From: Endozoicomonas elysicola
GTDB taxonomy: Bacteria; Pseudomonadota; Gammaproteobacteria; Pseudomonadales; Endozoicomonadaceae
Assembly: GCF_000710775.1 (NCBI RefSeq)
Contig: NZ_JOJP01000001.1
Coordinates: 4,488,141-4,552,140 of the forward strand
Length of the DNA stretch: 64,000 bases
Reading direction: 5' to 3'
The position numbers were made by a program, and so were the translations under genes. This document shows, piece by piece, positions 22,290 to 34,672 of the stretch (the first letter of the stretch is position 1; every line of letters starts with the position of its first letter). The notes beneath the pieces are model-generated. The model saw only the letters and a list, made by a program, of their open reading frames with translations. It was not told where the DNA came from and did no database searches.

Positions 22290-23996
22290 CTACGAAGCCA
22301 GCTCATCAATGTACTGGTCACGAACCTCCTGCTTAACTACCTTCTGCATGGCATTTCTTGGCAGCGGCTGTTCCGCAAAAACAACATGTGTCGGTACTTT
22401 GAATTTAGCCAGTGATGCCGCCACGTAATCCTGCAGTTCGGCATCAGACAATTCTTCTCCTGGCTGAAGATGAATCGCAACCGCCAGCTCTTCACCCCAT
22501 CTATTGTGAGGAACACCGAAAGCAGCGCTCTCCACAACAGCCGGATGCTCATTGATGAGTGCTTCTACCTCGGCACAATAAATATTTTCGCCCCCACGGA
22601 TCACCATATCTTTCTTTCGATCGCAGACGAAGAGCAAGCCCTTCTCGTCCAAATACCCCACATCACCAGAACGATACCAGCCTTCCTTCAATACCTTGGC
22701 GGTCTCTTCCTCTTTGCCCCAGTAGCCTTCCACCATGGCTGGACTTTTAATACAGATTTCACCCACCTCTCCAACAGACAGCTCGTCACCACCTTCATCG
22801 ATCACTTTAATTTCTGACACAGGGAAAGGAAGGCCAACACTGTCTTTGTTTTCCAGATACATAGGCCCCATATTAATGGAGGCATACATGTTACATTCCG
22901 TCATTCCATAACCAGTGCCCAGAAAGTTTAGAGGGAATTCATCAAGAATGTCTTTCAACAATGCTTCAGGCTGGGCAGCGCCAACACCGGTCAGGTTCAG
23001 AATACTCTCAGTGTCATACTGATCAAACTCAGGGTGCTCAAGGAAATCCCAGATCATTTTTGCGGCACCGGAGAAGGTAGCAACTTTTTCACGCTCTACC
23101 AATTCTAATGCTTTTTTAGCATCCCACTTTGACTGAATAACCACTTTCGTACCCTGTCGCAGAGCGGAAAGCACTACAGTATGCAGGCCGCTACCATGAA
23201 ATAGTGGTAATGCCAGTAACACCGCAGGGGCATGCCCTCGTTTCATCGCTGCCTGAACAGATTCAGGGTGCTGGGTAGCCATGGTCATGCCCGCAACAGA
23301 ACCACTGGTAAGGGCCTGCCCAATGGACCAATGCGAAGAAAGCGCCCCCTTTGGTCTGCCTGTTGTGCCTGAAGTATAGAGAATGAAAGCGGGATCTTTG
23401 CCATCAATACCCACATCTGGCATTTCAATTGCTGGACCACTTACCAGTGTCTGCCATGTGGTTACACGGTCATTCTGTGAAGCCGCTTCATCATCAACCA
23501 CAATGGCCCGAACATCCATCTCGGCCAGGTCAGCAACAATATGATTCAATCTACGAGCATCGGTGAAAACTAACTTTGCTCCAGAATCCTCAATGCCATA
23601 TTCCAACTCATCCCGCCCCCCCCAGCTATTAAGCGGAACAGCAATCGCGCCAGCAGAAGTAATCCCCATAAAAGCAAGGATCCACTCAGGCAGATTACGC
23701 ATGGCAATAGCAACACGGTCACCCTTTTTAATGTCAAACTGATCAATCAGCTGTGATGCCACCTTACTGGCTAGAGAGTAAGCTTCCTTAAAGGTATAGC
23801 GCTTGTCCTCATAAACAAGAAATGGCTGCTCGCCAAAAGCCAGGCTTTCCCGATAGATCTGTGGCAGCGTGGCTGGTGCATTTTTATAGGAACGGTAGGT
23901 GATGCCCTGGATGGTCGTCTCTTCAAGTTCAAACTGCGCGCCGGGACGAGTTAAACCTGCAAATACGGTCTTTACCGCATCAATAGCATTGGACAT
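22290..23996 (-). CDS. AMP-forming acyl-CoA ligase (class I adenylate-forming)
   Basis: The 568-residue enzyme carries the AMP-binding signature ILYTSGTTGRPKGALSSH, the motif GTGYGMTECN, GWYRSGDVGYLDEKG and DRKKDMVIRGGENIYCAEVE, and the catalytic lysine in PRNAMQKVVK. It activates a carboxylic acid to its CoA thioester; the acid is unknown. The sequence differs clearly from the FadD at 11251-12933, so it is not a recent copy. A medium-chain, cyclic or aryl acid is possible. The start lies before a 409-bp divergent region shared with a lipoprotein gene. Confidence 0.88.
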   Translation of the reverse strand: MSNAIDAVKTVFAGLTRPGAQFELEETTIQGITYRSYKNAPATLPQIYRESLAFGEQPFLVYEDKRYTFKEAYSLASKVASQLIDQFDIKKGDRVAIAMRNLPEWILAFMGITSAGAIAVPLNSWGGRDELEYGIEDSGAKLVFTDARRLNHIVADLAEMDVRAIVVDDEAASQNDRVTTWQTLVSGPAIEMPDVGIDGKDPAFILYTSGTTGRPKGALSSHWSIGQALTSGSVAGMTMATQHPESVQAAMKRGHAPAVLLALPLFHGSGLHTVVLSALRQGTKVVIQSKWDAKKALELVEREKVATFSGAAKMIWDFLEHPEFDQYDTESILNLTGVGAAQPEALLKDILDEFPLNFLGTGYGMTECNMYASINMGPMYLENKDSVGLPFPVSEIKVIDEGGDELSVGEVGEICIKSPAMVEGYWGKEEETAKVLKEGWYRSGDVGYLDEKGLLFVCDRKKDMVIRGGENIYCAEVEALINEHPAVVESAAFGVPHNRWGEELAVAIHLQPGEELSDAELQDYVAASLAKFKVPTHVVFAEQPLPRNAMQKVVKQEVRDQYIDELAS

Positions 23997-24313
23997 ATTT
24001 TTTTATCCTTATTGTTATTAAGAGCATGGTGAAAGCTGACTCAATTTCACACATCCTCTGGCCCCTACAAACCAGCTACACAGTTACCGGCCAAAATGGC
24101 TGTATTCTGCGAACTCACAAAAGAGGCATAAACCAGTGCAAGAAATAACTTTTTGTATCATCGCCAAACTGACAGCGGGAACAATGACAAAAACAGGCCA
24201 ATCTGCAATGGCAATTTTTTAAATCTCAATCATTCTGACCAGAGGCTTAAAAAACCAATGTCGTTTATTGTAGTAAAACGGCCACAAGCACATCAATAGA
24301 AATCACAAAAACA

Positions 24314-24334
24314 CAACAAACAACAAACAACAAA
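24314..24334. repeat. Short tandem repeat (CAACAAA)3
   Basis: Three perfect 7-base copies lie in the AT-rich divergent region 23997-24405, which otherwise holds only the promoter described next. It may have arisen by slippage. Confidence 0.8.
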
Positions 24335-24339
24335 AACAC

Positions 24340-24378
24340 TTGATCTCCCAATCATTTTATTTATAGTGACGCTATAAA
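24340..24378 (+). promoter_or_regulatory. Promoter with overlapping dyad before the lipoprotein-tetR operon
   Basis: TTGATC (24340-24345) and TATAGT (24362-24367) are spaced by 16 bases and could form a sigma-70 promoter. TTTATAG-TGACG-CTATAAA (24360-24378) is a perfect 7-bp dyad over the -10 element, a typical site for repression. The TetR-family gene in the same operon is the obvious candidate regulator. Confidence 0.45.
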
Positions 24379-24405
24379 AACAAAATAAAACAGGGAATCT
24401 ATTCC

Positions 24406-25998
24406 ATGAAACATCACTTTTTTGCTCTGCTATCAGCCGTACTACTGGCAGGCTGCAGCCCTTCTAAAGAGCCTGAACCTCTGAAAAGCTCAGCATTAAC
24501 TGCTCCCGAATTTATTGGCCAGTCAGCAACCGCCAAGCCCTTTCAGGGGAGCAATATTACCCACCCTTTTATGGCTAAAGCGGGTAAAAGTACTATTCAT
24601 GGCGATGGTTTTAATTCCGATGTCCATCTGATATCAGGCCCCCTGGGCATTAACCCGCAGATACAAACCCGTGATGGGTCCAATATGCCTGGAGGCATGT
24701 GCGCAACGGTCACCATCACAACTAAAGACCAGCTTATTGCACTGTGTGCATCTATTGCCGGGTTTGAAATCCACATGCTGAAGCCCAGATCACTTGAACT
24801 GTTGGCGCGCTTCAAATTACCAAACCGTCCAAGCTCGTTTCAGGCTCTGGTGAAACGTGACCCAACCATTGTTATGACGGATACTTCTGGCGGTGCCTAC
24901 TACTACCTTGATGATCAAGATCGAGTTGTGCTGGCTGACAGCACACAGCGAATTATCAGGCTTGCCAATCGCCAGACTGAAACCGGTGAATGGGAGTTCT
25001 ATTTGGATGGCAGCTGGGATCTCAGCCATGAAGTACCTAACGACTGTATGAATTGGAACAACTGGTTCCCTGATGGGGAATGCGACCCAATCACTGCCGT
25101 ATTACCTGATCACAAAGGCTTGATATGGTGGGTTACCCGTTATGGCCGGGTCGGCACCCTTAACCCTGAAACCGGCAGAGTAAAAAGCACACAATTTAAG
25201 GGAGAAGAGATCCAGAACAGCTTCGCAATGGATGAAAATGCGGCCTACGTTGTCACAGATCATGCAACCTATGCCATGAATACCGATGCCAGGGGAAAGC
25301 CCACTGTTCTCTGGCAGGAAGCATACGACCGTGGATCTGCACGTAAAGTGGGTTCTATCAATCAGGGATCTGGCACTACCCCGACGCTGCTGGGTGATCG
25401 GTATATCACGGTTACTGACAATGCAGACGAAAGGATCAACCTTCTGGTATACCGCCGTCAGCCAGACTTTAACGGCCAGCGGTTAATTTGTACGGTTCCC
25501 CTGTTTGAAAACCAGCAGTCGGCTACAGAAAACTCAATGGTAGGCTGGGGACGCACAATCATTATCGAAAATAATTTTGGCTACAGCAGTGCCGTCCAAC
25601 AGAAAGAGTGGGATGTTATTCCCGGCGGTATCACCCGGATTGATATCCGTAAAGATGAATCCGGTTGTGATGTTGTCTGGAATTCTCCTGAAAAAGCACC
25701 TTCCGTTGTACCAAAACTATCAGCCGATAATGGTCTTGTGTATTTCTACACCTTTGAACAACAGAAAAATGCAGAGGATGTCGCATGGTACCTGATGGCT
25801 CTGGATGCAAACAGTGGTAAAACAGCCTTTAAAATTCGCACTGGTGCAGGCATGGCGTTTGACAATAACTGGGCTCCCATTACCATCGGCACTGATGGCA
25901 CGGCTTATGTAGGCACCATCAAGGGCATCATTGCTATCTGGGATGAGCCGCAACCAGCCTTGAGCCAATCAACAGAGCATGGGGCAAACCAGGGATAA
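24406..25998 (+). CDS. Beta-propeller-like lipoprotein
   Basis: The 530-residue protein has a lipoprotein signal (MKHHFFALLSAVLLAGC; lipobox LAGC). The mature part shows repeated blade-like motifs (GLIWWVTRYGRVGTLNPETGRV, NAAYVVTDHATYAMN, VAWYLMALDANSGKTAFKIRTG, DGTAYVGTIKGIIAIWD) similar to PQQ/YVTN-type propellers. Several cysteines and two WNNW-like segments (NWNNWFPDGE, FDNNWAP) occur. It is likely anchored in the periplasm or on the outer membrane and may bind a small ligand or protein. It is 6 bp from a TetR gene. Confidence 0.75.
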   Translation: MKHHFFALLSAVLLAGCSPSKEPEPLKSSALTAPEFIGQSATAKPFQGSNITHPFMAKAGKSTIHGDGFNSDVHLISGPLGINPQIQTRDGSNMPGGMCATVTITTKDQLIALCASIAGFEIHMLKPRSLELLARFKLPNRPSSFQALVKRDPTIVMTDTSGGAYYYLDDQDRVVLADSTQRIIRLANRQTETGEWEFYLDGSWDLSHEVPNDCMNWNNWFPDGECDPITAVLPDHKGLIWWVTRYGRVGTLNPETGRVKSTQFKGEEIQNSFAMDENAAYVVTDHATYAMNTDARGKPTVLWQEAYDRGSARKVGSINQGSGTTPTLLGDRYITVTDNADERINLLVYRRQPDFNGQRLICTVPLFENQQSATENSMVGWGRTIIIENNFGYSSAVQQKEWDVIPGGITRIDIRKDESGCDVVWNSPEKAPSVVPKLSADNGLVYFYTFEQQKNAEDVAWYLMALDANSGKTAFKIRTGAGMAFDNNWAPITIGTDGTAYVGTIKGIIAIWDEPQPALSQSTEHGANQG

Positions 25999-26004
25999 TA
26001 AATT

Positions 26005-26568
26005 ATGGGTAGACCCCGCGTGCGTAACCGTATTCTGGAAGCCGCCAGGAACCTTCTGGAAACGGAGGGCCTCACAGGGCTCACAACCAAAGCTGTTGCA
26101 ATGCATGCCGGGGTTACCGAAGCCAGCCTTTTCAATAACTTTGGTGATAAAACAGGGCTACTGCAGGCTTTGATTAATGAAGCCCTGCCTGAACAAGCAG
26201 CGCTTATGACACATATTACCGAAGACATTGAGCCAATAGACTTGTGGCTTCATAACGTGTTTGAAGCTGCTATAGCCTACTTTGAACGCGTTCTTCCAAT
26301 CGCAGCGTCCTCTCTAACAATGGGTCAGGCTTCTATTCCTAAAGGTCGGGTAAAAGGATTCTATACTCCCCGTCAAATGCTTTCTGACAGACTGAAAGAG
26401 TTGAAAGAAAACAACCGGATTAAAAGAGAGATTACACCAGAACTCACTGCCGTCATGTTGATGGGAACTGCCATGCATACCGCAATGACCCGGCTGTCAT
26501 TAGGTGACAGTGAGTTCTCACACCATTTCACCGCTCAACAGCTTGCTGAATCTCTCGGTATCGCATAG
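26005..26568 (+). CDS. TetR/AcrR family transcriptional regulator
   Basis: The 187-residue protein begins with a TetR DNA-binding domain: RNRILEAARNLLETEGLTGLTTKAVAMHAGVTEASLFNNFGDKTGLLQALINEAL. The C-terminal ligand-binding part is diverse, as is normal for the family. It starts 6 bp after the lipoprotein stop, so both are one transcript. This pairing suggests that the regulator controls the lipoprotein, possibly through the dyad at 24360-24378. The ligand is unknown. Confidence 0.9.
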   Translation: MGRPRVRNRILEAARNLLETEGLTGLTTKAVAMHAGVTEASLFNNFGDKTGLLQALINEALPEQAALMTHITEDIEPIDLWLHNVFEAAIAYFERVLPIAASSLTMGQASIPKGRVKGFYTPRQMLSDRLKELKENNRIKREITPELTAVMLMGTAMHTAMTRLSLGDSEFSHHFTAQQLAESLGIA

Positions 26569-26777: not shown

Positions 26778-28283
26778 ATGCCCAATAGAATTCCTCTGTT
26801 TATCGATGGCGAGTTCACTGCCAGTGAAAGCTCGCAGTATATCCCTGTCACAAATCCTGCGACTCAGGAGCTGCTGGCGGAACTGCCTTTTGCGACTGAA
26901 GCCGAAATGGAAAAAGCCATTGAAAGCGCTAAGTCGGCCTTTAAAAAGTGGAGAGATGTCCCTGTTTCTGACCGTGCCCGCTTGATGATGCGTTATGTTG
27001 CCCTGCTAAAAGAAAATCATGATGCACTGGGCGAACTGGTTTCTAAGGATACCGGTAAAACTTTTGCTGACGCCAAGGGGGATGTATGGCGTGGTATTGA
27101 AGTGGTAGAACAGGCAGCTAACATCCCATCTTCCATGATGGGTGAAACGGTTGAAAATGTTGCCAATAACATCGACACCTACAGTTACACGCAACCACTT
27201 GGGGTTTGTGTTGGCATCACCCCTTTCAATTTCCCGGCCATGATTCCATTGTGGATGTACCCCCTGGCCATTGCCGCTGGTAACACATTTATTCTCAAGC
27301 CCTCTGAGCAAGTTCCCCTGACGGTCATGCGCCTGATTGAGTTGTTTGTGGAAGCCGGTGCTCCTAAAGGTGTATTACAAGCTGTTCACGGTGGAAAAGA
27401 GCAGGTTGACTACCTGTTGAACCACCCTGATACCAAGGCTGTGTCGTTTGTAGGATCCGTACCTGTTGGTAAATACATCTACAAAACGGCCACTGAAAAC
27501 ATGAAACGGGCACAGTGCATGGCTGGTGCAAAAAACCACATGGTCATCATGCCTGATGCGGACAAAGACCGCGTATTGAATGGCCTTGTTGGCGCATCCG
27601 TTGGTGCTGCAGGCCAGCGCTGCATGGCCATCAGTGTCGCGGTCTTTGTCGGCGATAGCAAGAACTGGATTAATGAGCTGAAAGAGCAACTTTCAGTCGT
27701 TAAGCCTGGCGCGTGGGACGATCCCAAAGCCGGTTATGGCCCGATTATTTCCAAGGCGGCTACAGAGCGTGTACTGGGATTAATTGCCAAAGGTAAGGAA
27801 GAAGGGGCTACCTGTCTTCTGGATGGCAGTGATTGCACCGTTGAAGGGCTACCGGATGGTAACTGGGTTGGACCAACCCTGTTTACCGATGTAACCACTG
27901 ATATGGCCATCTATCAGGAAGAGATCTTCGGCCCGGTTCTCTGCTGCATCACCGTCGACACTCTGGCTGAAGCGATCGAACTGATCAATGCCAGCCCATA
28001 CGGCAATGGCACATCAATTTTCACCGGCTCTGGTGCCGCTGCCCGTAAATACCAGCGTGAAATTGAAGTTGGTCAGGTAGGTATTAATATTCCTATTCCT
28101 GTACCGCTCCCCTTCTTCTCCTTTACCGGCTGGAAAGGCTCGTTTATGGGTGATCTTCATGCCTATGGGAAGCAGGCAGTGCGTTTCTATACAGAAACCA
28201 AAACCGTCACTTCCCGCTGGAACTATGATGAAGAAGCCTTCAAACAGAGTGATCAGCCAAACCTGACGATCAACCTGAAGTAA
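26778..28283 (+). CDS. mmsA: Methylmalonate-semialdehyde dehydrogenase (CoA-acylating)
   Basis: The 501-residue enzyme has the MmsA type of aldehyde dehydrogenase fold: [36 protein letters not shown], and the catalytic Cys282 in [42 protein letters not shown] is the characteristic C-terminus. It oxidises methylmalonate semialdehyde to propionyl-CoA at the end of valine degradation, and also acts on malonate semialdehyde. It stands alone here, with other valine genes outside the window. It fits with the leucine operon at 34-43 kb. Confidence 0.95.
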
Positions 28284-28290
28284 ACTTCCA

Positions 28291-28312
28291 AAGGCTGGCT
28301 TTTGCCAGCCTT
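28291..28312. terminator. Hairpin between convergent mmsA and esterase genes
   Basis: AAGGCTGGC-TTTT-GCCAGCCTT is a perfect 9-bp stem placed 8 bases after the mmsA stop. There is no strong T-run on either side, so its strength is uncertain. Confidence 0.55.
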
Positions 28313-28330
28313 GCCTCACCTCCTCCGACC

Positions 28331-29416
28331 TCAATGCATATGCCTTAACAAAAAGTCATTCAACTCGGCATACACCTGTCTGGACTCAGGAGTATCCGCT
28401 GCATACAGGTAATCAGCATGTGACATGCCCTCATAAACATTCAACTCTGCAACGACAGAAGCCTGTCGTAGTTTTCGATGAACCCTGACCGTATCACTTA
28501 ACAACAAATCCCGAGTACCAGTAACAAGATACGTTGGTGGAAAACTCCCGTATTGTCCATACACCGGGGAGATTAAAGGCATTAGCAGATCATGATTACC
28601 GGCATAAAGCGCTGCAGATTGAGACAATAATCCCTCATTCCCCACCAGTAACCGGTCAAGTCCTTCATTGGTATATTGTGTATCCCCTGTTTTCGTCAGA
28701 TCAGACCATGGCGTTCCCAGGTAGAGCGCTCCGGGAAAAGCAATCCCAAGCTCTCTGAATTTCAATAACGATGCCAGCGCCAGGTTCCCCCCAGCCGACG
28801 TCCCCCCCAGAATCATTGATTTTGCATGTCTCTCCCTCAGCAGTCCCTGGTACACGATGACAACATCATCCAGAGGAGCCGGAAACGGATGCTCTGGCAA
28901 TGTACGATAGTCAATGGACACAACCGGGATCTTTAGACGAGTAGCAATATACATTGACTCTTGAATGGAGCCATCTCCCTCGTTAAGTAAAAATGCACCA
29001 CCATGGATATCCACAAAAAGGTGATCTTTATGCCTTTCATCCACGTCATGGGGGGTTACATAGCGGACTGTTACGCCATTAATTTTTGAAAGGGTGATAT
29101 TTACAGGAAGCTGTTTCATTAACTCTTGAGTCTTAACGATACGCTTACTGTTCACGCTGTTCTTTTTCTCTTTCCACTCGGCCCCGCTCTCAGGCTTGAA
29201 CTGGCTGGCTGCTTTTACATCGGGCTGCAGGTTGCTCGTAATATAGTCGCGTAGACCAATGCTGATATCTTCAGGTACCGGAACAGTGCGTTCAGCAATC
29301 ATCCAGCTTACTTTACCGTCCTTCGGGATTATCTCTTTCTGCCAGACACAACCGGAAACCAATAATAAGCATAGGATTAGTTTCCCGAGTAGCAGTTTTT
29401 TATTCAGAATAATCAT
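28331..29416 (-). CDS. Lipoprotein esterase/lipase of the hormone-sensitive lipase family
   Basis: The 361-residue protein has a lipoprotein signal with lipobox LVSGC (Cys23). The alpha/beta hydrolase domain shows the HSL-family oxyanion motif HGGA (138-141), GGTSAGG with nucleophile Ser207, an acid residue in VTGTRDLLLSD, and His in GMSHADY. It is expected to hydrolyse acyl esters in the periplasm or at the outer membrane. About 100 residues separate the lipid anchor from the catalytic domain. It converges with mmsA. Confidence 0.87.
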   Translation of the reverse strand: MIILNKKLLLGKLILCLLLVSGCVWQKEIIPKDGKVSWMIAERTVPVPEDISIGLRDYITSNLQPDVKAASQFKPESGAEWKEKKNSVNSKRIVKTQELMKQLPVNITLSKINGVTVRYVTPHDVDERHKDHLFVDIHGGAFLLNEGDGSIQESMYIATRLKIPVVSIDYRTLPEHPFPAPLDDVVIVYQGLLRERHAKSMILGGTSAGGNLALASLLKFRELGIAFPGALYLGTPWSDLTKTGDTQYTNEGLDRLLVGNEGLLSQSAALYAGNHDLLMPLISPVYGQYGSFPPTYLVTGTRDLLLSDTVRVHRKLRQASVVAELNVYEGMSHADYLYAADTPESRQVYAELNDFLLRHMH

Positions 29417-29621
29417 TAAAAATAAAACCTAATATTTTTAAAGTTTGAGCATAGAACCAGGTTGAAAAATCATGAAATCAACATCTTAAATACTTATATA
29501 TCAACAAGATATAAGATCGAATCCATTTGACATCCAAACATTTAAATCCTATTAAAACAACAAGCCACTCTATTTTTATTGAGCGTTAGTTTCAAATTAA
29601 ATTCAAGTAAAGAGATCTGTC

Positions 29622-30797
29622 ATGGTTAGAAAAATCTATCTATACCTGCTTATCCATTCCATTTTTAGCCTTTGCACCCTTCCATCAGCAGTATCAGCAA
29701 AGGAGTTTAATTGTATTCAGTTTTTAAATCAGCCAGTAGAACAGCAACGCGAAAAATTTACGGCCGCAAGAGATCAACTTATTGAGCACTTCAGTAAAAG
29801 TGATAGTTATGGATTTTCTACCTCAGACTTAGCCAGCCTGCTTCGTAAAAAAAAATTCGATCCAGACATTGGCAATGGAGTATACTTGGTTCACCTTCCT
29901 AATTTTATTTTCGAAACTAATCAGCACATTAATGCTGATTTTGTCAAAGATTTATATTTCAAAATCAATAATCTTGAAACGATTGGAAAATGCTTCCATT
30001 ATCAGGCTCAGGAAACTTCACCGCAGCCTCTTATGGCATTAAAGCTATACACCCCGGAAGACAGCAACCCCTTTGATGCAAGCAATCAAGTCTTTATGGG
30101 CTACACAACAGTATCTACATTGAATGGAAAGCCAGCGAAGCAGGCAAGAGTTACATCCCCCCAAGAGTGTGCAACACACCAGTGCATATTTACAAATACA
30201 CCTTTAGAACAAGCCAGAGAGTTATTAAAAACAAACACCGTAATTAGACTAATTCATAATCCAAAAGAGCTGGCAAAAGTTGTTTATGTGGCTCCAGATC
30301 AGCCTGATGAAAACCATCTTCCTTTACAAACCTGGCTAACTGAAGTAACCCTTTTTAAAACAGGAGAGATCTTCACTCGTCCCGAAATTTATATGACCAT
30401 TGCCTATTACTCAGAAGAGCAATTAATCAGTAAAGTCGCTCGCCCTCTTCCGTGGGTGAACAAAAAAGGAATTAACACAGGATCTTCATTGTTGCTGGAA
30501 TGGCCAACAGGAAGTGACAGAGCAAAACTGACCGTAATGGAGAGTGATATGGATATTCCTTACCGTTCAATAGCCAATATTATTCTTGGCATTTTCCAAC
30601 ATTTCATCAGTGATTCATACGCATCCCCGGCCATAACCTCAATTGCTGAGCACATGCAGGACCAGCCTAAGTCTGCAACAAGCTGGGGTGACGATGACTA
30701 TATTGGCAAAGTCACTGTACACAGAAGAGGCGCCCTCACTGATATTATGACCGATGAAGGAACTGCAACATTAAAGCTTCAACACAAATATAAATAA
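29622..30797 (+). CDS. Exported protein of unknown function
   Basis: A 391-residue protein with a signal peptide (MVRKIYLYLLIHSIFSLCTLPSAVSA). The mature part has no motif I recognise. It shows cysteine pairs (FNCIQF, IGKCFHYQ, SPQECATHQCIF), and a C-terminal section beginning WGDDDYIGKVTVHRRG. The upstream 205-bp region is very AT-rich, unlike the flanking metabolic genes, and the gene uses many A/T-ending codons. This suggests an accessory gene. A secreted or surface factor is possible but not shown. Confidence 0.6.
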   Translation: MVRKIYLYLLIHSIFSLCTLPSAVSAKEFNCIQFLNQPVEQQREKFTAARDQLIEHFSKSDSYGFSTSDLASLLRKKKFDPDIGNGVYLVHLPNFIFETNQHINADFVKDLYFKINNLETIGKCFHYQAQETSPQPLMALKLYTPEDSNPFDASNQVFMGYTTVSTLNGKPAKQARVTSPQECATHQCIFTNTPLEQARELLKTNTVIRLIHNPKELAKVVYVAPDQPDENHLPLQTWLTEVTLFKTGEIFTRPEIYMTIAYYSEEQLISKVARPLPWVNKKGINTGSSLLLEWPTGSDRAKLTVMESDMDIPYRSIANIILGIFQHFISDSYASPAITSIAEHMQDQPKSATSWGDDDYIGKVTVHRRGALTDIMTDEGTATLKLQHKYK

Positions 30798-30801
30798 TGC
30801 T

Positions 30802-30875
30802 CCAGGAGCCTGTCGGACTTAGCGTAGCGAGAAAAAGTCCTAATGCAGTCAGTGGTAAGTCAAGCAGGCTCCTGG
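30802..30875. repeat. 74-bp palindromic element (miniature repeat)
   Basis: CCAGGAGCCTG (30802-30812) pairs with CAGGCTCCTGG (30865-30875); after a 3-base internal loop GACTTA (30816-30821) pairs with TAAGTC (30856-30861). A competing inner pair GGACTT/AAGTCC (30815-30820 with 30835-30840) is also possible. It starts 5 bases after the exported-protein stop. It may act as a terminator, but its size and nested stems look like a mobile REP or MITE-type element, with ends similar to insertion-sequence inverted repeats. Confidence 0.65.
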
Positions 30876-30959
30876 CGTCCTATTATTTAGCAACCAAACT
30901 CACCACCCACAACGGCATTTGTGAATGGTTCCCAGGGGGCCTCCAACACGCGGCCTTGA

Positions 30960-32465
30960 TTAATTCAGCCTCCACCGTGAAGCAAACTCAAGAAAGTTGG
31001 CCATAATTGGTCCCGACTGGTTATAAGGAACAACAGCTGCCGGATGGAACTGGGTTGAGTAGACTGGACGATTCACATTATGCATGGCCTGGATATAGGA
31101 AGATCTGGCCATCACAGCGAAATCCTGGTGTTCCTTGATAAACTCATCACTCACTGACCAGCTGTGTATCTCAACCGCCTGAAAAGGGTTTGGGACATTG
31201 TCAAAAATCGGGTTACTGGTGAACGGTGGCTGAATAGTCACTTTATCGACTGGCAACCCCTGGTTTTTCCTGAATATTGTGTCATCAAACCATTCCATCC
31301 AGTGTGCGAATGAGATGCCATACGCCATGGCAAAAAATTCATTGCCTGCGCACATGCCCATCATGGGAATATCGCGGACTTCCCTCATCACTTGATATTC
31401 ACCATAGTATTCAAACATAGGCAGATACTGCCAGTCTGCATTGTTTCCACTGAACATAATGGCCATTGGTTTATGTTTCAGTTTCTTCAGCACATCCAGT
31501 GAGAATTCGTAATGCGGAACCAATACCGTTTTAAACCCTTTACTCTTTACAAAATCACTAAGCTGCGTATATGTAAAACCATTCATCTGGTTACCAACAA
31601 GAAGTACATATTTCCCTTCAGGCACATCTGGAATTGAAGGAGAGCCTTTGGTGTAAGGAATGATGGTGTTGATCTGAGCCTGGAGAGCATTCTGCTTATT
31701 GATCAGTAAACGGAAATAGCGAGCTGTGACCGGTTTAAAATCAATAATATTACGATAAGTATCATTACCCACCACTTTGGCATCTCTAATGTCTTTCCAG
31801 CTGACTCGATCATCACTGTACTGCCATTGGAAGTCCACCAGCCACCCGGCAGCGGCCGTTATACTGCGGGTTGACAGCATCCAGAAACGACTTAGAGCTG
31901 TCTTTTTCCCAAGATCCAGTACTACCCAGCTATTTTTTTCCCCTATCCCCAGGGGTGAATTGTTCCAGAAAGTCAGCTGTCCCTGATCGTCCCAGTCAAT
32001 GATGTTTTTCGGGTTCTCTCCAGAAGACACTTCGATGGATTTAACCGGTACTCTTAGATGCCCACTGAATGTTCTGGATCCCTGGTAATCCATAACAAAA
32101 CGACTGACCGCCCATGGACTGACTGCCTTTTTATTAAGGGTACGAACCCGCCAGTAATAACGACCATCTTTCAATCTATTTTCCGGCTTAACACGCACCT
32201 GAGCAAAATACGGATTTAGTTGCCTGATATTTTTATAGTGGGCAACCACATTCCTGAACGTCTCATCACTGGCAATTTGCAGTTCATAATGCCACTTGGG
32301 GTCATGACCACTGACAGAGAACGTCATCACCGGCCTGGGGTTAGTTAATACCATGTCCCACTGCGGGTTATTGTTTTGCCTGGGTGATGGCAGTTCGCTG
32401 ATGGATAGCGCAATTACAGGCATGAGCAGTAGCCAAAGTGCAAGAAAAGGACGCAGAAGAAGCAT
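30960..32465 (-). CDS. Exported FN3-like / F5/8 type C / class I amidotransferase-like fusion
   Basis: The 501-residue protein has a signal peptide (MLLLRPFLALWLLLMPVIALS). Residues about 40-130 resemble a fibronectin III-like fold (DPKWHYELQIASDETF, GRYYWRVRTLNKKAVSPWA). Residues about 140-270 look like a discoidin/F5/8C domain (SWVVLDLGKKTALSRFWM, DFQWQYSDDRVSWKDI, TARYFRLLI). Residues 285-500 form a class I glutamine amidotransferase-like domain with nucleophile Cys372 in GMCAGNEF and His474 in QFHPA. The usual Glu after HP is Ala, so glutaminase activity may be altered or lost. Export is unusual for this enzyme class. It lies 135 bp downstream of the ATP/ADP translocase on the same strand. 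Confidence 0.75.
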   Translation of the reverse strand: MLLLRPFLALWLLLMPVIALSISELPSPRQNNNPQWDMVLTNPRPVMTFSVSGHDPKWHYELQIASDETFRNVVAHYKNIRQLNPYFAQVRVKPENRLKDGRYYWRVRTLNKKAVSPWAVSRFVMDYQGSRTFSGHLRVPVKSIEVSSGENPKNIIDWDDQGQLTFWNNSPLGIGEKNSWVVLDLGKKTALSRFWMLSTRSITAAAGWLVDFQWQYSDDRVSWKDIRDAKVVGNDTYRNIIDFKPVTARYFRLLINKQNALQAQINTIIPYTKGSPSIPDVPEGKYVLLVGNQMNGFTYTQLSDFVKSKGFKTVLVPHYEFSLDVLKKLKHKPMAIMFSGNNADWQYLPMFEYYGEYQVMREVRDIPMMGMCAGNEFFAMAYGISFAHWMEWFDDTIFRKNQGLPVDKVTIQPPFTSNPIFDNVPNPFQAVEIHSWSVSDEFIKEHQDFAVMARSSYIQAMHNVNRPVYSTQFHPAAVVPYNQSGPIMANFLEFASRWRLN

Positions 32466-32579
32466 AATGAGACTCTTGGGAAAGGAAGCATGAAGGAATG
32501 CAGAGAGAAGGGATGATCATTTCGGTCTGAAATCAGTTAGAAGTTAGCATATATTGCTGCGCCCACAAGTTCAGGTTTC

Positions 32580-32597
32580 GCAACGGCAAGCCGCTGC
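32580..32597. terminator. Hairpin directly after the ntt stop codon
   Basis: GCAACGGC-AA-GCCGCTGC forms an 8-bp stem with one mismatch. A T-run (TTTTTATT) lies on the plus-strand side only. For the ntt transcript on the minus strand it may act as a weak terminator or 3' stabiliser. Confidence 0.4.
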
Positions 32598-32600
32598 TTT

Positions 32601-34109
32601 TTATTCGACATCACTGTGTTGTTTTGCCAGGTGCCTGAACCGCGTACCTAGCGATTTAGCCGATGTTATCCAGACAATAAAGAAACCCAGAACAATAACA
32701 GCCACATAAGGTGTTATGGCTGAAAGAGAGCCAAAGATAACCAGCAAGACCTGTTGAATCAGCGAGCCGGTAGACTTGCCCAAAGGGTTACCAATAACGT
32801 CTACGGCTGCCTTGCCTTTCACTTTCTTCTCAGGGTCCAGAGGGATATAACTCATCTCTTTGGTGGGGTCGAATAAAGAATACTTGGTGGATTTACTGAG
32901 AATATTTTGCAGCGCTCCTATAACAACAGTCATCATTAAGGGCGACATTCCCAAGATAAACCAGCCATTGGGTACGCTATCCCGGAACAGAACAAAGCTG
33001 AAAAACAAACAGCCCGTGGTTAAAAGCACAGCCGGTGTACAGAGTGCCGCCACGGTCCAGCCAAATCGTCGAATGACATTATTAGTCACGAAAAGCATCA
33101 TGAAGATAGTAAAAATCCCGGTACAGGTAGAAAACAGACCCATAAACTGATTGTATTCATTCGGTGATGGGTACTGCATTCGCAACTGATTCTTCCAGGT
33201 TACCTCCACCATATTGATACAAACTCCATAACAGATAACCAGCATCGCTATACAAAGCAAGTACCTTGAGCTGAGAATCAGATGCAGACTGTCTTTTATG
33301 GAAAGGCTCAACTTTTCCAGCTTTGACTCTGCGGTATTATCCGCCTGATAAAGCTTGGGGTCGGTTACAACAAAGCGGTTAATCCACCAGTACACCAGCA
33401 TAATTAGCAGACCGGCAATGGTTATTACTCCGGTCATGATATTGAGGGAGTACCCCCAGGAGTCAGTTCCTTCAGGTAATGTTTCCCGTGCCTGAGAGGC
33501 GTAATAGACAAAAAAACCAGCGGTTGGTAACGCCAGGTTTCCCATCATTCCAAAGAGTGCATAAAACCGTTTTGACTCGGATATCTGGGTAATATGATTG
33601 GCAAACCCCCAGAATAGGAGTGAGAGGCAAACACTTCCCCAAAGCTCAGACATCACATAGAAAAGGGAGAAGGTCCAGTTACGCAGAACGGCGATAAACC
33701 CTTTAAACCCCAGAGGCAGAACGGTTTCCAGATAGTCAGCCAGCTGATCGGCATGAAGAACATCCCGACAGGGGTACAAAACAAAAGAAAACAGGCAGAA
33801 AAAAAGGATGAACCCCGAAATGATAAAATAGAAAAGCATATTGCGACGAAGCACGTTGCTCAACTTTGCGTAGGAAATAGTAAAAAGAATGGCAAAAGGG
33901 ACATTCACCCATAACTTCAGAAACGGGATAATTTCTGCTCCCGAACCATGACCGGTAATCACCAGTGTATCTTTAGTATCCCTGAGAATGGTGTAAACAA
34001 ACAAAACCAGATAAAACATCAGGATCATGGGAATCACCTTTTTCAACTCATAGCCATGAACAGGCCAGAGTCTGGCTCTCCACACACTGAACGGATGATT
34101 ATCTTGCAT
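32601..34109 (-). CDS. ATP/ADP (nucleotide) translocase, NTT/Tlc family
   Basis: The 502-residue protein has about twelve hydrophobic segments and matches the TLC ATP/ADP transporter family. Diagnostic stretches are ILRDTKDTLVITGHGSGAEI, IPFLKLWVNVPFAILFTISY, SELWGSVCLSLLFWGFAN, CINMVEVTWKNQLRMQYPS and VKGKAAVDVIGNPLGKS. The four charged residues needed for transport in plant and bacterial NTTs seem present: Lys46, Glu155, Glu302 and Lys431/433. Family members exchange host ATP for bacterial ADP (energy parasitism) or import nucleotides. They are typical of Chlamydiae, Rickettsiales and plastids and rare in gammaproteobacteria. It is divergent from liuR. Substrate class (ATP/ADP exchange or net import) cannot be fixed from sequence alone. 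Confidence 0.93.
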   Translation of the reverse strand: MQDNHPFSVWRARLWPVHGYELKKVIPMILMFYLVLFVYTILRDTKDTLVITGHGSGAEIIPFLKLWVNVPFAILFTISYAKLSNVLRRNMLFYFIISGFILFFCLFSFVLYPCRDVLHADQLADYLETVLPLGFKGFIAVLRNWTFSLFYVMSELWGSVCLSLLFWGFANHITQISESKRFYALFGMMGNLALPTAGFFVYYASQARETLPEGTDSWGYSLNIMTGVITIAGLLIMLVYWWINRFVVTDPKLYQADNTAESKLEKLSLSIKDSLHLILSSRYLLCIAMLVICYGVCINMVEVTWKNQLRMQYPSPNEYNQFMGLFSTCTGIFTIFMMLFVTNNVIRRFGWTVAALCTPAVLLTTGCLFFSFVLFRDSVPNGWFILGMSPLMMTVVIGALQNILSKSTKYSLFDPTKEMSYIPLDPEKKVKGKAAVDVIGNPLGKSTGSLIQQVLLVIFGSLSAITPYVAVIVLGFFIVWITSAKSLGTRFRHLAKQHSDVE

Positions 34110-34198
34110 GGGCTTCCCATTGGGACGAGTGATTCATGATTCTGCTTATAGATAGCCAGTAAACCGGTAAAGTTCCATGCGGTGAGCTCTTTGAGCCG

Positions 34199-34228
34199 CT
34201 TTACGTTTACGTAAAGGGAATCTATACT
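34199..34228 (+). promoter_or_regulatory. liu promoter with MerR-type dyad
   Basis: TTTACG (34200-34205) and TATACT (34223-34228) are spaced by 17 bases. CTTTACG-TTTA-CGTAAAG (34199-34216) is a perfect dyad covering the -35 element and spacer, where MerR-family regulators bind. LiuR, encoded just downstream, is the likely ligand-responsive regulator. The dyad is about 90 bases upstream of the divergent ntt start. Confidence 0.65.
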
Positions 34229-34288
34229 CAAGTCATAATAAGAAAATGAAGCGTCTACAAACGCGCTTTAAATAAAGAGCACAGAACA

Positions 34289-34672
34289 ATGTCCGAGACC
34301 ACGTTCACAATTTCAGAACTCGCCCGGGAGTTCGACCTCACCCCCAGGGCGATACGCTTTTATGAAGACCAGGGGCTACTCAGCCCCAGCCGCAATGGCC
34401 TGCAGCGCATTTACTCCAAGAAGGACCGCGTACACCTCAAGCTCATTGTCCGGGGCAAGCGTCTTGGCTTAAGTCTTGCTGAATCCAGAGATCTGATTGA
34501 GCTGTATGACCCGACTTCCCGAAATAAAAAGCAGCTCCAGGCAATGCTGGATGCCATTGACACGTCCAGTACGCGTCTTGAGCAACAGCTCAAAGACATT
34601 CAAATGATGCGGGATGAACTTTTCGAAGCCAGAACGCGTTGCCTTAAAGCCTTGCAGGAAAACGAGAGTTAA
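34289..34672 (+). CDS. liuR: MerR-family regulator LiuR
   Basis: The 127-residue protein has a MerR helix-turn-helix (FTISELAREFDLTPRAIRFYEDQGLLSPSR) and a C-terminal coiled coil (AMLDAIDTSSTRLEQQLKDIQMM). No metal-binding cysteine pattern is seen; its one C-terminal Cys is isolated. LiuR represses or activates the leucine and isovalerate utilisation genes in gammaproteobacteria. It is the first gene of the liu cluster, 59 bp before liuA, and probably controls its own promoter through the dyad at 34199-34216. Confidence 0.9.
   Translation: MSETTFTISELAREFDLTPRAIRFYEDQGLLSPSRNGLQRIYSKKDRVHLKLIVRGKRLGLSLAESRDLIELYDPTSRNKKQLQAMLDAIDTSSTRLEQQLKDIQMMRDELFEARTRCLKALQENES

What the first reader, a model, noticed from the sequence alone, without database searches (positions are those of the whole stretch)
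32601..34109. ATP/ADP translocase (NTT) in a gammaproteobacterial chromosome
The protein carries the diagnostic NTT stretches and all four charged residues linked to transport (Lys46, Glu155, Glu302, Lys431/433). NTTs are hallmarks of energy parasites such as Chlamydiae and Rickettsiales. Here one sits beside an ordinary liu operon in a genome with normal metabolism. This suggests a bacterium that can draw ATP or nucleotides from a host cell at some stage of life. The gene may come by horizontal transfer.
Basis: partly seen in the sequence, partly recalled or inferred. Interest (0 to 1): 0.85.

Follow-up and report, generated by a model that had tools for sequence, protein, structure and literature searches.

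The report
ATP/ADP translocase gene in Endozoicomonas elysicola
A culturable marine animal symbiont with a large genome and its own energy metabolism carries two genes of the transporter family that chlamydiae use to take ATP from their host cells, which makes it a testable case of an energy-exchange gene present without genome shrinkage.

Summary
The ORF at 32601-34109 (-) encodes an intact 502-aa TLC/NTT protein (688 bits, cut-off 21), about 54% and 53% identical to two solved ADP,ATP carriers. The genome has a second NTT (33% identity), atpD, purH and a type III secretion export gate. Full-type NTTs occur in 28 of 37 genomes of the family but 8 of 368 others of the class, 7 of those 8 of 1.9 Mb or less. 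Here the gene lies in a ~5.9-kb insertion ending just before the liu promoter. Six of 11 other genus genomes carry a 72-73% identical allele elsewhere, beside an unknown ~1000-aa protein and an HD-domain protein. Selection is purifying (dN/dS 0.08-0.09). Most likely it exchanges ADP+Pi for host ATP during tissue-associated growth; substrate and direction are inferred. A new member of a known family in an unusual owner; none of the papers I opened reports it there.

The parts
32601..34109 (-). NTT (TLC family, PF03219) gene, 502 aa, the finding itself
   Evidence: ORF; Pfam 688.4 bits; TIGR00769 660.4 bits; PDB 9j3n/9j3j; trees
33915..33917 (-). codon of K65, equivalent of AtNTT1 K155 (ADP binding in AtNTT1 mutants, PMC3306366 passages)
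   Evidence: alignment mapping; codon position by arithmetic from the ORF
33645..33647 (-). codon of E155, equivalent of AtNTT1 E245 (translocation step in AtNTT1)
   Evidence: alignment mapping; codon position by arithmetic from the ORF
33204..33206 (-). codon of E302, equivalent of AtNTT1 E385
   Evidence: alignment mapping; codon position by arithmetic from the ORF
32775..32777 (-). codon of K445, equivalent of AtNTT1 K527 (ATP binding in AtNTT1)
   Evidence: alignment mapping; codon position by arithmetic from the ORF
28284..34199 (.). segment carrying the NTT (lipase-like ORF, ORF 29622, GATase/F5-8C ORF, NTT) that is absent between mmsA and liuR in same-genus genome G007
   Evidence: in G007 mmsA is next to liuR with about 255 bp between the homologous blocks; DNA homology with G003, G009, G010 starts at 34200, with G007 at 34199, with G005 at 34160; with G004 and G011 at 34289 plus a 30-base match at 34200-34229
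34200..34228 (+). right edge of the insertion: promoter-like site (TTTACG-17-TATACT) in front of liuR, with a LiuR-operator-like palindrome (motif recalled)
   Evidence: sequence; promoter scan (10 found against 11.0 expected, so weak alone); homology edge
30960..32465 (-). downstream co-directional ORF: class I glutamine amidotransferase plus F5/8 type C domain, beside the NTT in G000 and G008 but not in G002
34289..34672 (+). MerR-family regulator (liuR by position), divergent from the NTT; flanking context, not part of the NTT system
26778..28283 (+). mmsA (methylmalonate-semialdehyde dehydrogenase), left flank of the insertion
   Evidence: TIGR01722 782.4 bits; adjacent to liuR in G007

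Best explanation
It is a canonical, single-domain NTT of the NTT1-like kind, most likely an ATP/ADP antiporter of the inner membrane. Shown: an intact gene, the full-length family match, conservation of all four functionally tested charged residues, closer relationship to the ATP/ADP carriers CpNTT1 and AtNTT1 than to its own paralogue and to the rickettsial (Megaera) row, purifying selection, and insertion at this chromosomal site. Inferred: when the bacterium is in animal tissue or a host cell and host ATP reaches its periplasm, the protein imports ATP in exchange for ADP plus phosphate. The exchange is driven by the concentration gradients, so it supplements the bacterium's own ATP synthase and purine synthesis rather than replacing them. 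It would then be a facultative, stage-specific energy exchanger.
For: Family. Residues K65/E155/E302/K445. Identity 53.8% to CpNTT1, 52.9% to AtNTT1, 33.1% to its own paralogue. Tree path 1.22 to CpNTT1, 1.50 to AtNTT1, 2.22 to the G748 row, 3.21 to Megaera, 3.90 to the paralogue (on the tree). dN/dS 0.076-0.090 over five pairs, two of them with the gene of G008, taken to be Ca. E. cretensis, whose genome is described as decaying (PMC4671022, passages). Counter-exchange of ATP against ADP+Pi as the NTT1 mode: PMC3306366, passages. Host-associated context: SctV-type export gate, 944.8 bits; reports of Endozoicomonas observed intracellularly in some hosts (PMC4132622, part 1 of 2) and in fish epitheliocystis (PMC4671022, passages). 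NTTs in 28 of 37 family genomes.
Against: The substrate range of an NTT cannot be predicted from primary sequence (PMC4256464, passage). The four charged residues are also conserved in the diverged paralogue and in 58 of 61 rows. The organism has its own atpD and purH, so it need not depend on host ATP. Whether the E. cretensis cysts are intracellular could not be determined by their describers (PMC4671022, passage). Ca. Endonucleobacter, an intranuclear parasite of the same family, is reported to lack TLC genes (PMC11521996, passage); 9 of 37 family genomes have no full-type NTT, and 3 of 11 other genus genomes (G004, G007, G011) lack the window type. No chlamydial NTT2/NTT3-type sequence was available for comparison, and the deep forks of the trees are unresolved. 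No expression data were seen.
Confidence: 0.6

Rival explanations
1. It is a nucleotide-acquisition transporter rather than an energy exchanger: it takes up host or environmental nucleotides (ATP, other NTPs or dNTPs) as a source of purine, phosphate and nitrogen.
For: Characterised family members have diverse substrates and transport modes (PMC5381601). In relatives the same NTT clade sits beside an OprD-type porin (5 of 5 NTT-A loci of genus g6) and an HD protein whose profile matches SAMHD1-type dNTP triphosphohydrolases, which would fit a pathway from outer membrane through periplasm to inner membrane.
Against: F1 and F2 were not found in the window genome; an OprD partner was not searched there. 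The two characterised proteins in my trees nearest to it are ATP/ADP carriers. F2 is below Pfam's HD cut-off (21.6 against 22), lies away from the NTT in G799, and its export is only guessed from a hydrophobic N-terminus. The OprD substrate is unknown.
Confidence: 0.22
2. It works in reverse: the bacterium exports ATP to the host or into a host compartment, as a mutualistic service or a signal, in the way proposed for Ca. Azoamicus ciliaticola.
For: An antiporter follows gradients, and the cell has its own ATP synthase gene. An NTT is thought to exchange ATP and ADP with the host in a respiring endosymbiont (PMC7969357, passages).
Against: Host cytosol normally has a high ATP/ADP ratio (general knowledge). 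No sign of the genome reduction seen in Azoamicus. Fish disease associations (PMC4671022, passages) are not obviously mutualistic.
Confidence: 0.1
3. It serves free-living life, for example scavenging extracellular ATP or nucleotides in seawater and sediment, and has no host role.
For: Major et al. 2017 found NTTs widely in free-living bacteria (PMC5381601, parts 1-2 of 4).
Against: NTTs of 370 bits or more are in 8 of 368 other genomes of the class sample, 7 of those 8 of 1.9 Mb or less, and in 3 of 397 of the phylum sample, all 1.2-1.4 Mb. The matches of the remaining genomes in these calls score about 18-64 bits.
Confidence: 0.08

Closest known systems
ADP,ATP carrier protein 1 of PDB 9j3n/9j3o (taken to be Chlamydia pneumoniae NTT1; species recalled)
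   Same: Full-length alignment (query 4-491 to chain 6-494), 53.8% identity, all four charged residues
   Different: That owner is an obligate intracellular parasite with a reduced genome (general knowledge); this one has a 5.6-Mb genome with atpD and purH
Chloroplastic ADP,ATP carrier protein 1, PDB 9j3j/9j3l/9j3m (Arabidopsis NTT1)
   Same: 52.9% identity, same four residues; ATP/ADP counter-exchange reported for AtNTT1 (PMC3306366 passages)
   Different: Plastid envelope protein in a plant, not a bacterial inner-membrane protein
Second NTT of the same genome (NTT-B, G000:C1:697388-698743)
   Same: TLC family, 392 bits; same four residues
   Different: 33.1% identity, 489 aa; below the TIGR00769 cut-off (350.7 against 387.2); neighbours are an ArsR-type methyltransferase in 8 of 8 and tkt in 7 of 8 other genus genomes examined
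TlcA of Ca. Azoamicus ciliaticola (PMC7969357, passages only)
   Same: Single-domain NTT of a gammaproteobacterial endosymbiont with the AtNTT1 residues conserved, as reported
   Different: Highly reduced endosymbiont that cannot make nucleotides de novo; its sequence was not compared here
NTT-HEAT / NTT-HEAT-cNBD fusions (PMC5381601)
   Same: Contain a TLC domain
   Different: The window protein is a single domain with no HEAT or cNBD part

Membership tests
NTT / TLC family (PF03219, TIGR00769) | Profile match above the curated cut-off over the whole domain | tested here: met
   688.4 bits (cut-off 21), profile 4-491 of 491; TIGR00769 660.4 (cut-off 387.2)
NTT / TLC family (PF03219, TIGR00769) | Four charged residues K155/E245/E385/K527 (AtNTT1 numbering) | tested here: met
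   K65/E155/E302/K445
NTT / TLC family (PF03219, TIGR00769) | About 12 transmembrane helices, MFS-like fold | tested here: inconclusive
   Crude hydropathy gives 10 peaks; structure prediction could not be queued; full-length alignment to solved NTTs supports the fold indirectly
NTT / TLC family (PF03219, TIGR00769) | Transports nucleotides | not testable with these tools
   Needs an uptake assay
NTT1-type ATP/ADP antiporter | Groups with characterised ATP/ADP exchangers rather than with other NTT subtypes | tested here: inconclusive
   Near CpNTT1 and AtNTT1, but deep forks are unresolved and no chlamydial NTT2/NTT3 was available
NTT1-type ATP/ADP antiporter | 1:1 exchange of ATP against ADP (+Pi) | not testable with these tools
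   Needs reconstitution or E. coli uptake assay
Other MFS transporter | Better match to an MFS family than to TLC | tested here: not met
   TLC is the only Pfam family at E 0.001
NTT-HEAT fusion | C-terminal HEAT repeats | tested here: not met
   502 aa, no HEAT domain at E 0.001
Gene set of an obligate energy parasite | Loss of own ATP or nucleotide synthesis, reduced genome | tested here: not met
   atpD 850.4 bits, purH 802.3 bits, 5,606,375-bp genome; only these two marker genes were tested, not whole pathways

The most novel reading that the evidence does not exclude
Members of this family keep a facultative nucleotide-exchange system built round NTT-A. In 10 of the 17 genomes in which I found NTT-A the carrier sits beside a large unknown protein (F1); in 9 it also has a SAMHD1-like HD protein with a hydrophobic N-terminus (F2) beside it, and in all 5 of genus g6 an OprD porin. 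In the E. elysicola group the carrier sits without F1 and F2 beside the liu operon. If these parts work together, host ATP or nucleotides enter through the porin, are edited or hydrolysed in the envelope and are exchanged at the inner membrane, in bacteria that never lost their own energy metabolism.
Probability: 0.25. Interest if true: 0.75.

Novelty: new member of a known kind. Interest (0 to 1): 0.5.

Why it matters
[quoted passage not shown] Endozoicomonas is a dominant associate of corals, sponges and molluscs and is implicated in fish disease (PMC4132622, part 1 of 2); several species have been cultured (PMC4671022, passage). It therefore offers a direct test of whether ATP exchange comes before genome reduction, whether it serves parasitism or mutualism, and why an intranuclear parasite of the same family (Ca. 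Endonucleobacter, PMC11521996) is reported to lack the gene family that 28 of 37 family genomes here carry.

Tried and rejected
Other MFS family: rejected. Plasmid- or phage-borne: no phage record matched; among plasmids only Ca. Megaera pPCS201 (34.7% identity) and a partial Cupriavidus match (25.1%); no viral contig (only two peptide patterns were used, so a weak test). Transposon or repeat ends of the insertion: the repeat finder gave only short two-copy repeats, which the tool warns are often chance. Odd composition as a sign of transfer: NTT GC 0.447 and GC3 0.515, window 0.467, not clearly atypical, though below the liu genes (0.48-0.53). Rfam: no match in the window at the gathering thresholds.

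A first thought that the window allele falls outside its genus on the NTT tree was tested and not upheld: holding the genus together gave a better likelihood (p-AU 0.643). The case for separate histories rests on distances, position and neighbours. A single origin of the 24 canonical family rows is not rejected (p-AU 0.32), nor is grouping of the G013/G014/G019 type with CpNTT1 (p-AU 0.188); joining that type with the window clade alone is nearly rejected (p-AU 0.0578).

F2 always next to NTT-A: rejected; 9 of 10 F2 carriers have it there, G799 does not. F1 identity: no Pfam or NCBIfam family above its cut-off and only E about 0.4 in the PDB.

Full report
WHAT IS THERE. The ORF at 32601-34109 on the minus strand is intact, ATG-initiated and 502 aa long. 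It is a single-domain TLC/NTT protein: Pfam PF03219 688.4 bits over residues 3-491 and no other Pfam family at E 0.001; TIGR00769 660.4 bits against a cut-off of 387.2. phmmer against the PDB gives two distinct sequences, 9j3n (ADP,ATP carrier protein 1, E 8.7e-179) and 9j3j (ADP,ATP carrier protein 1, chloroplastic, E 3.9e-156). I take 9j3n to be C. pneumoniae NTT1 and 9j3j Arabidopsis NTT1; the species names are recalled, and two searches did not find the structure paper in the library.

THE FUNCTIONAL RESIDUES. AtNTT1 mutants point to K155, E245, E385 and K527 (PMC3306366, PMC4256464, PMC10654386; passages). One constant offset, which I worked out, puts all four on K, E, E, K in the 9j3j chain, and through the alignment they are window K65, E155, E302 and K445. 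The four positions read KEEK in 58 of 61 aligned rows (exceptions L039, L104, L106), the diverged paralogue included, so they support function but do not tell subtypes apart.

WHOSE GENOME. The window lies at G000:C1:4488141-4552140 of a genome of 5,606,375 bases in two contigs; C1 has 5,569,560 bases. E. elysicola DSM 22380 is reported with a 5,569,560-bp largest scaffold and two scaffolds (PMC5240137, passages) and 5.61 Mb (PMC4132622, part 1 of 2). I therefore treat the genome as that strain, and the family code f1 as Endozoicomonadaceae; both are inference. The three named relatives found are Ca. E. cretensis (97%), Endozoicomonas sp. SESOKO1 (92%) and sp. ISHI1 (75%). The genome holds atpD (850.4 bits), purH (802.3 bits) and an SctV-type export gate (944.8 bits); these are single marker genes, not whole-pathway checks.

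TWO NTTs. A second TLC gene, 'NTT-B', lies at C1:697388-698743 (392.2 bits). It is 33.1% identical to the window protein and scores below the TIGR00769 cut-off (350.7). In the eight other genus genomes whose NTT-B stretch I had (each about 4.4-4.5 kb), the ArsR-type methyltransferase lies beside it in 8 of 8 and tkt in 7 of 8. NTT-B thus sits in one place in the genus; the window type (NTT-A) does not.

HOW COMMON. Scoring a full-type NTT as 370 bits or more: 26 of 35 family genomes (12 of 12 in the genus, 14 of 23 others) plus 2 of 2, that is 28 of the 37 family genomes listed. The window type, NTT-A, is in 17 of these 37 (15 rows, two more by comparison). None of 21 other genomes of the order reached 370 bits; one, G037, had weak matches. 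In the class sample it was 8 of 368 other genomes, sized 1.0, 1.0, 1.1, 1.3, 1.4, 1.5, 1.9 and 3.1 Mb. In the phylum sample it was 3 of 397, sized 1.2-1.4 Mb; the two samples overlap. At E 0.001 and without a score limit, 68 of 369 and 37 of 398 genomes (own included) have some match; those that I did not count score about 18-64 bits and mostly cover part of the profile (G276, 63.8 bits, covers nearly all of it). Major et al. 2017 (PMC5381601, parts 1-2 of 4 and passages) already show NTTs across free-living bacteria, with 45 gammaproteobacterial sequences; Endozoicomonas is not named in its main text, and its supplement was not readable here.

TREE. A 61-row tree puts the window protein in a 15-row clade of this family alone (100/100), in an unresolved fork with CpNTT1, AtNTT1 and other lineages of the family and of the class. 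NTT-B is a separate 14-row clade on a branch of 1.74. Left out before the tree: L028 (weak match), a cut copy of a row that was kept, a cut piece of a third G738 gene, the G001 and G075:C731 fragments, L042 (no phmmer hit) and all weak matches; G799 and G800 came later. The tool warns of long branches that meet, so deep joins are unsafe. Paths from the window protein: CpNTT1 1.22, AtNTT1 1.50, G748 2.22, Megaera 3.21, NTT-B 3.90. A 32-row tree without many of the long rows leaves the deep order open: one origin for the 24 canonical family rows is not rejected (p-AU 0.32); joining the G013/G014/G019 type with the window clade alone is nearly rejected (p-AU 0.0578); joining that type, up to 65.1% identical to CpNTT1, with CpNTT1 is not rejected (p-AU 0.188). 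A donor cannot be named: one chlamydial sequence was at hand.

HOW IT GOT HERE. In same-genus genome G007, which lacks NTT-A, mmsA is the neighbour of liuR; in the window the two are separated by 28284-34199, which holds a lipase-like ORF, ORF 29622, a GATase/F5-8C ORF and the NTT (whether the other three ORFs lie elsewhere in G007 was not searched). DNA homology with G003, G009 and G010 starts at 34200, with G007 at 34199 and with G005 at 34160, at or next to the promoter-like site before liuR. In G003 a 275-aa methyltransferase-like ORF lies upstream of liuR with no NTT, but about 1.3 kb of other sequence, with a doubtful ORF, lies between, so it is not a clean empty site. In G002 an ORF that looks nearly the same by eye is followed by an acetyltransferase-like ORF, the NTT and liuR (both names recalled). 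So the NTT was most likely inserted beside liuR in the E. elysicola / cretensis / SESOKO1 group. Six same-genus genomes (G001, G003, G005, G006, G009, G010) carry another NTT-A allele elsewhere, 72-73% identical, while liuA is 95-97% identical in the four of these six where one search found it (G001 and G006 gave no match at its strict limit). Across the eight cross-group pairs examined the NTT-A path is 0.616-0.625, but the NTT-B path for the same genome pairs is 0.155-0.219; in the seven within-group pairs NTT-A is about equal to or below NTT-B (0.032 and 0.033 for G000-G008). This suggests separate histories of the two alleles. Against it, a genus-wide clade is not rejected on the tree and even scored better, so faster change after relocation remains possible. 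Composition is not clearly unusual.

SELECTION. dN/dS is 0.086 (window-G008), 0.090 (window-G002), 0.078 (G008-G002), 0.078 (G003-G009) and 0.076 (G025-G028); dS was saturated for window-G003. The gene is kept, also in G008, which I take to be Ca. E. cretensis, whose genome is described as decaying (PMC4671022, passages).

NEIGHBOURS IN RELATIVES. In the six same-genus genomes and three genomes of genus g6 (G021, G025, G028) NTT-A lies between F1, a 925-1059-aa protein read divergently, and F2, a 376-406-aa protein read towards it. F1 has no family or PDB match of weight. F2 is just below Pfam's HD cut-off (21.6 against 22); its profile matches HD phosphohydrolases including SAMHD1 (2hek 2.6e-7; SAMHD1 5.1e-7), and H98, H122, D123 and D196 are invariant in the five aligned; their catalytic role is recalled. 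Both start with hydrophobic stretches that look like export signals by eye. In g6 an OprD porin follows the NTT in 5 of 5 NTT-A loci. F1 was absent from 13 of 13 other genomes tested. F1 is beside NTT-A in 10 of 17 NTT-A genomes; it was searched for and not found in G000, G002 and G008, not seen in the 20 kb around the G015 gene or the stretch of G800, and the NTT-A neighbours in G014 and G019 were not examined. F2 was in 10 of 37 family genomes, beside the NTT in nine; in G799 it lies elsewhere, and G800 has NTT-OprD without F2. F1 and F2 were not found in the window genome; OprD was not searched there.

HOW IT MOST LIKELY WORKS. NTT1-type carriers exchange ATP for ADP plus phosphate (PMC3306366, passages). 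By position, identity and residues the window protein most likely does the same in the inner membrane. Direction follows gradients; in host tissue import of host ATP is the likeliest, as a supplement to the cell's own metabolism. Substrate, direction, expression and the route across the outer membrane are inferred. Rivals are net nucleotide uptake, export to the host, and a free-living use.

WHAT IS IN PRINT. I searched the held library for Endozoicomonas with 'ADP translocase' (1 paper), 'nucleotide transport' (9), 'ATP, ADP, transporter, intracellular, genome' (7), 'NTT' (1), 'ADP carrier' (0) and a mixed set (133, 20 listed). Of these I looked at passages of PMC11521996 (Ca. Endonucleobacter lacks the TLC family), PMC11809670 (ATP/ADP translocases named for Simkania), PMC4943182, PMC11317633, PMC12491435 and PMC8755941, made a term search of PMC13286007 that found none of its terms, and besides them saw passages of PMC4671022 and PMC5240137 and part 1 of PMC4132622. 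None of what I saw reports an NTT in Endozoicomonas; the word 'translocase' is absent from the main texts of PMC4671022, PMC5240137, PMC12491435, PMC8755941 and PMC13286007. Most other listed papers were not opened, supplements were not readable, and most subscription journals are not held, so priority is not established; database annotation as an NTT very likely exists.

VERDICT. A real and well-preserved member of a known family in an unusual owner. Interest is moderate: the family is known, but the combination of own energy metabolism, two NTT types, a relocated allele and a variable set of partners makes the origin and use of ATP exchange testable.

Noticed in passing
L115:6483-12361, L121:5711-13323 (relatives, not the window): NTT-A lies beside an unknown ~1000-aa protein (F1), a SAMHD1-like HD protein (F2) and, in genus g6, an OprD porin; F2 is beside the NTT in 9 of 10 carriers.
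   Followed up: partly
G000:C1:697388-698743 (L002, L109:9367-10836): Second, deeply diverged NTT in the same genome, in the tkt / ArsR-type methyltransferase / metK neighbourhood.
   Followed up: partly
G014 and G019 (L003, L004, L029, L030, L092-L095): Two family members with smaller genomes (2.8 and 3.2 Mb) carry five and three NTTs of at least two canonical types; L003 is 65.1% identical to the chlamydial NTT1: a possible step towards dependence.
   Followed up: no
window 22290-26568: A second difference from G007: an AMP-binding enzyme, a lipoprotein-like ORF and a TetR regulator lie between the aminotransferase ORF and mmsA, which are neighbours in G007.
   Followed up: no
window 29622-30797: 391-aa ORF with no Pfam or NCBIfam match and low GC (0.399) inside the inserted segment.
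   Followed up: no
window 30960-32465: F5/8 type C domain fused to a class I glutamine amidotransferase domain, with a signal-peptide-like start by eye, downstream of the NTT.
   Followed up: no
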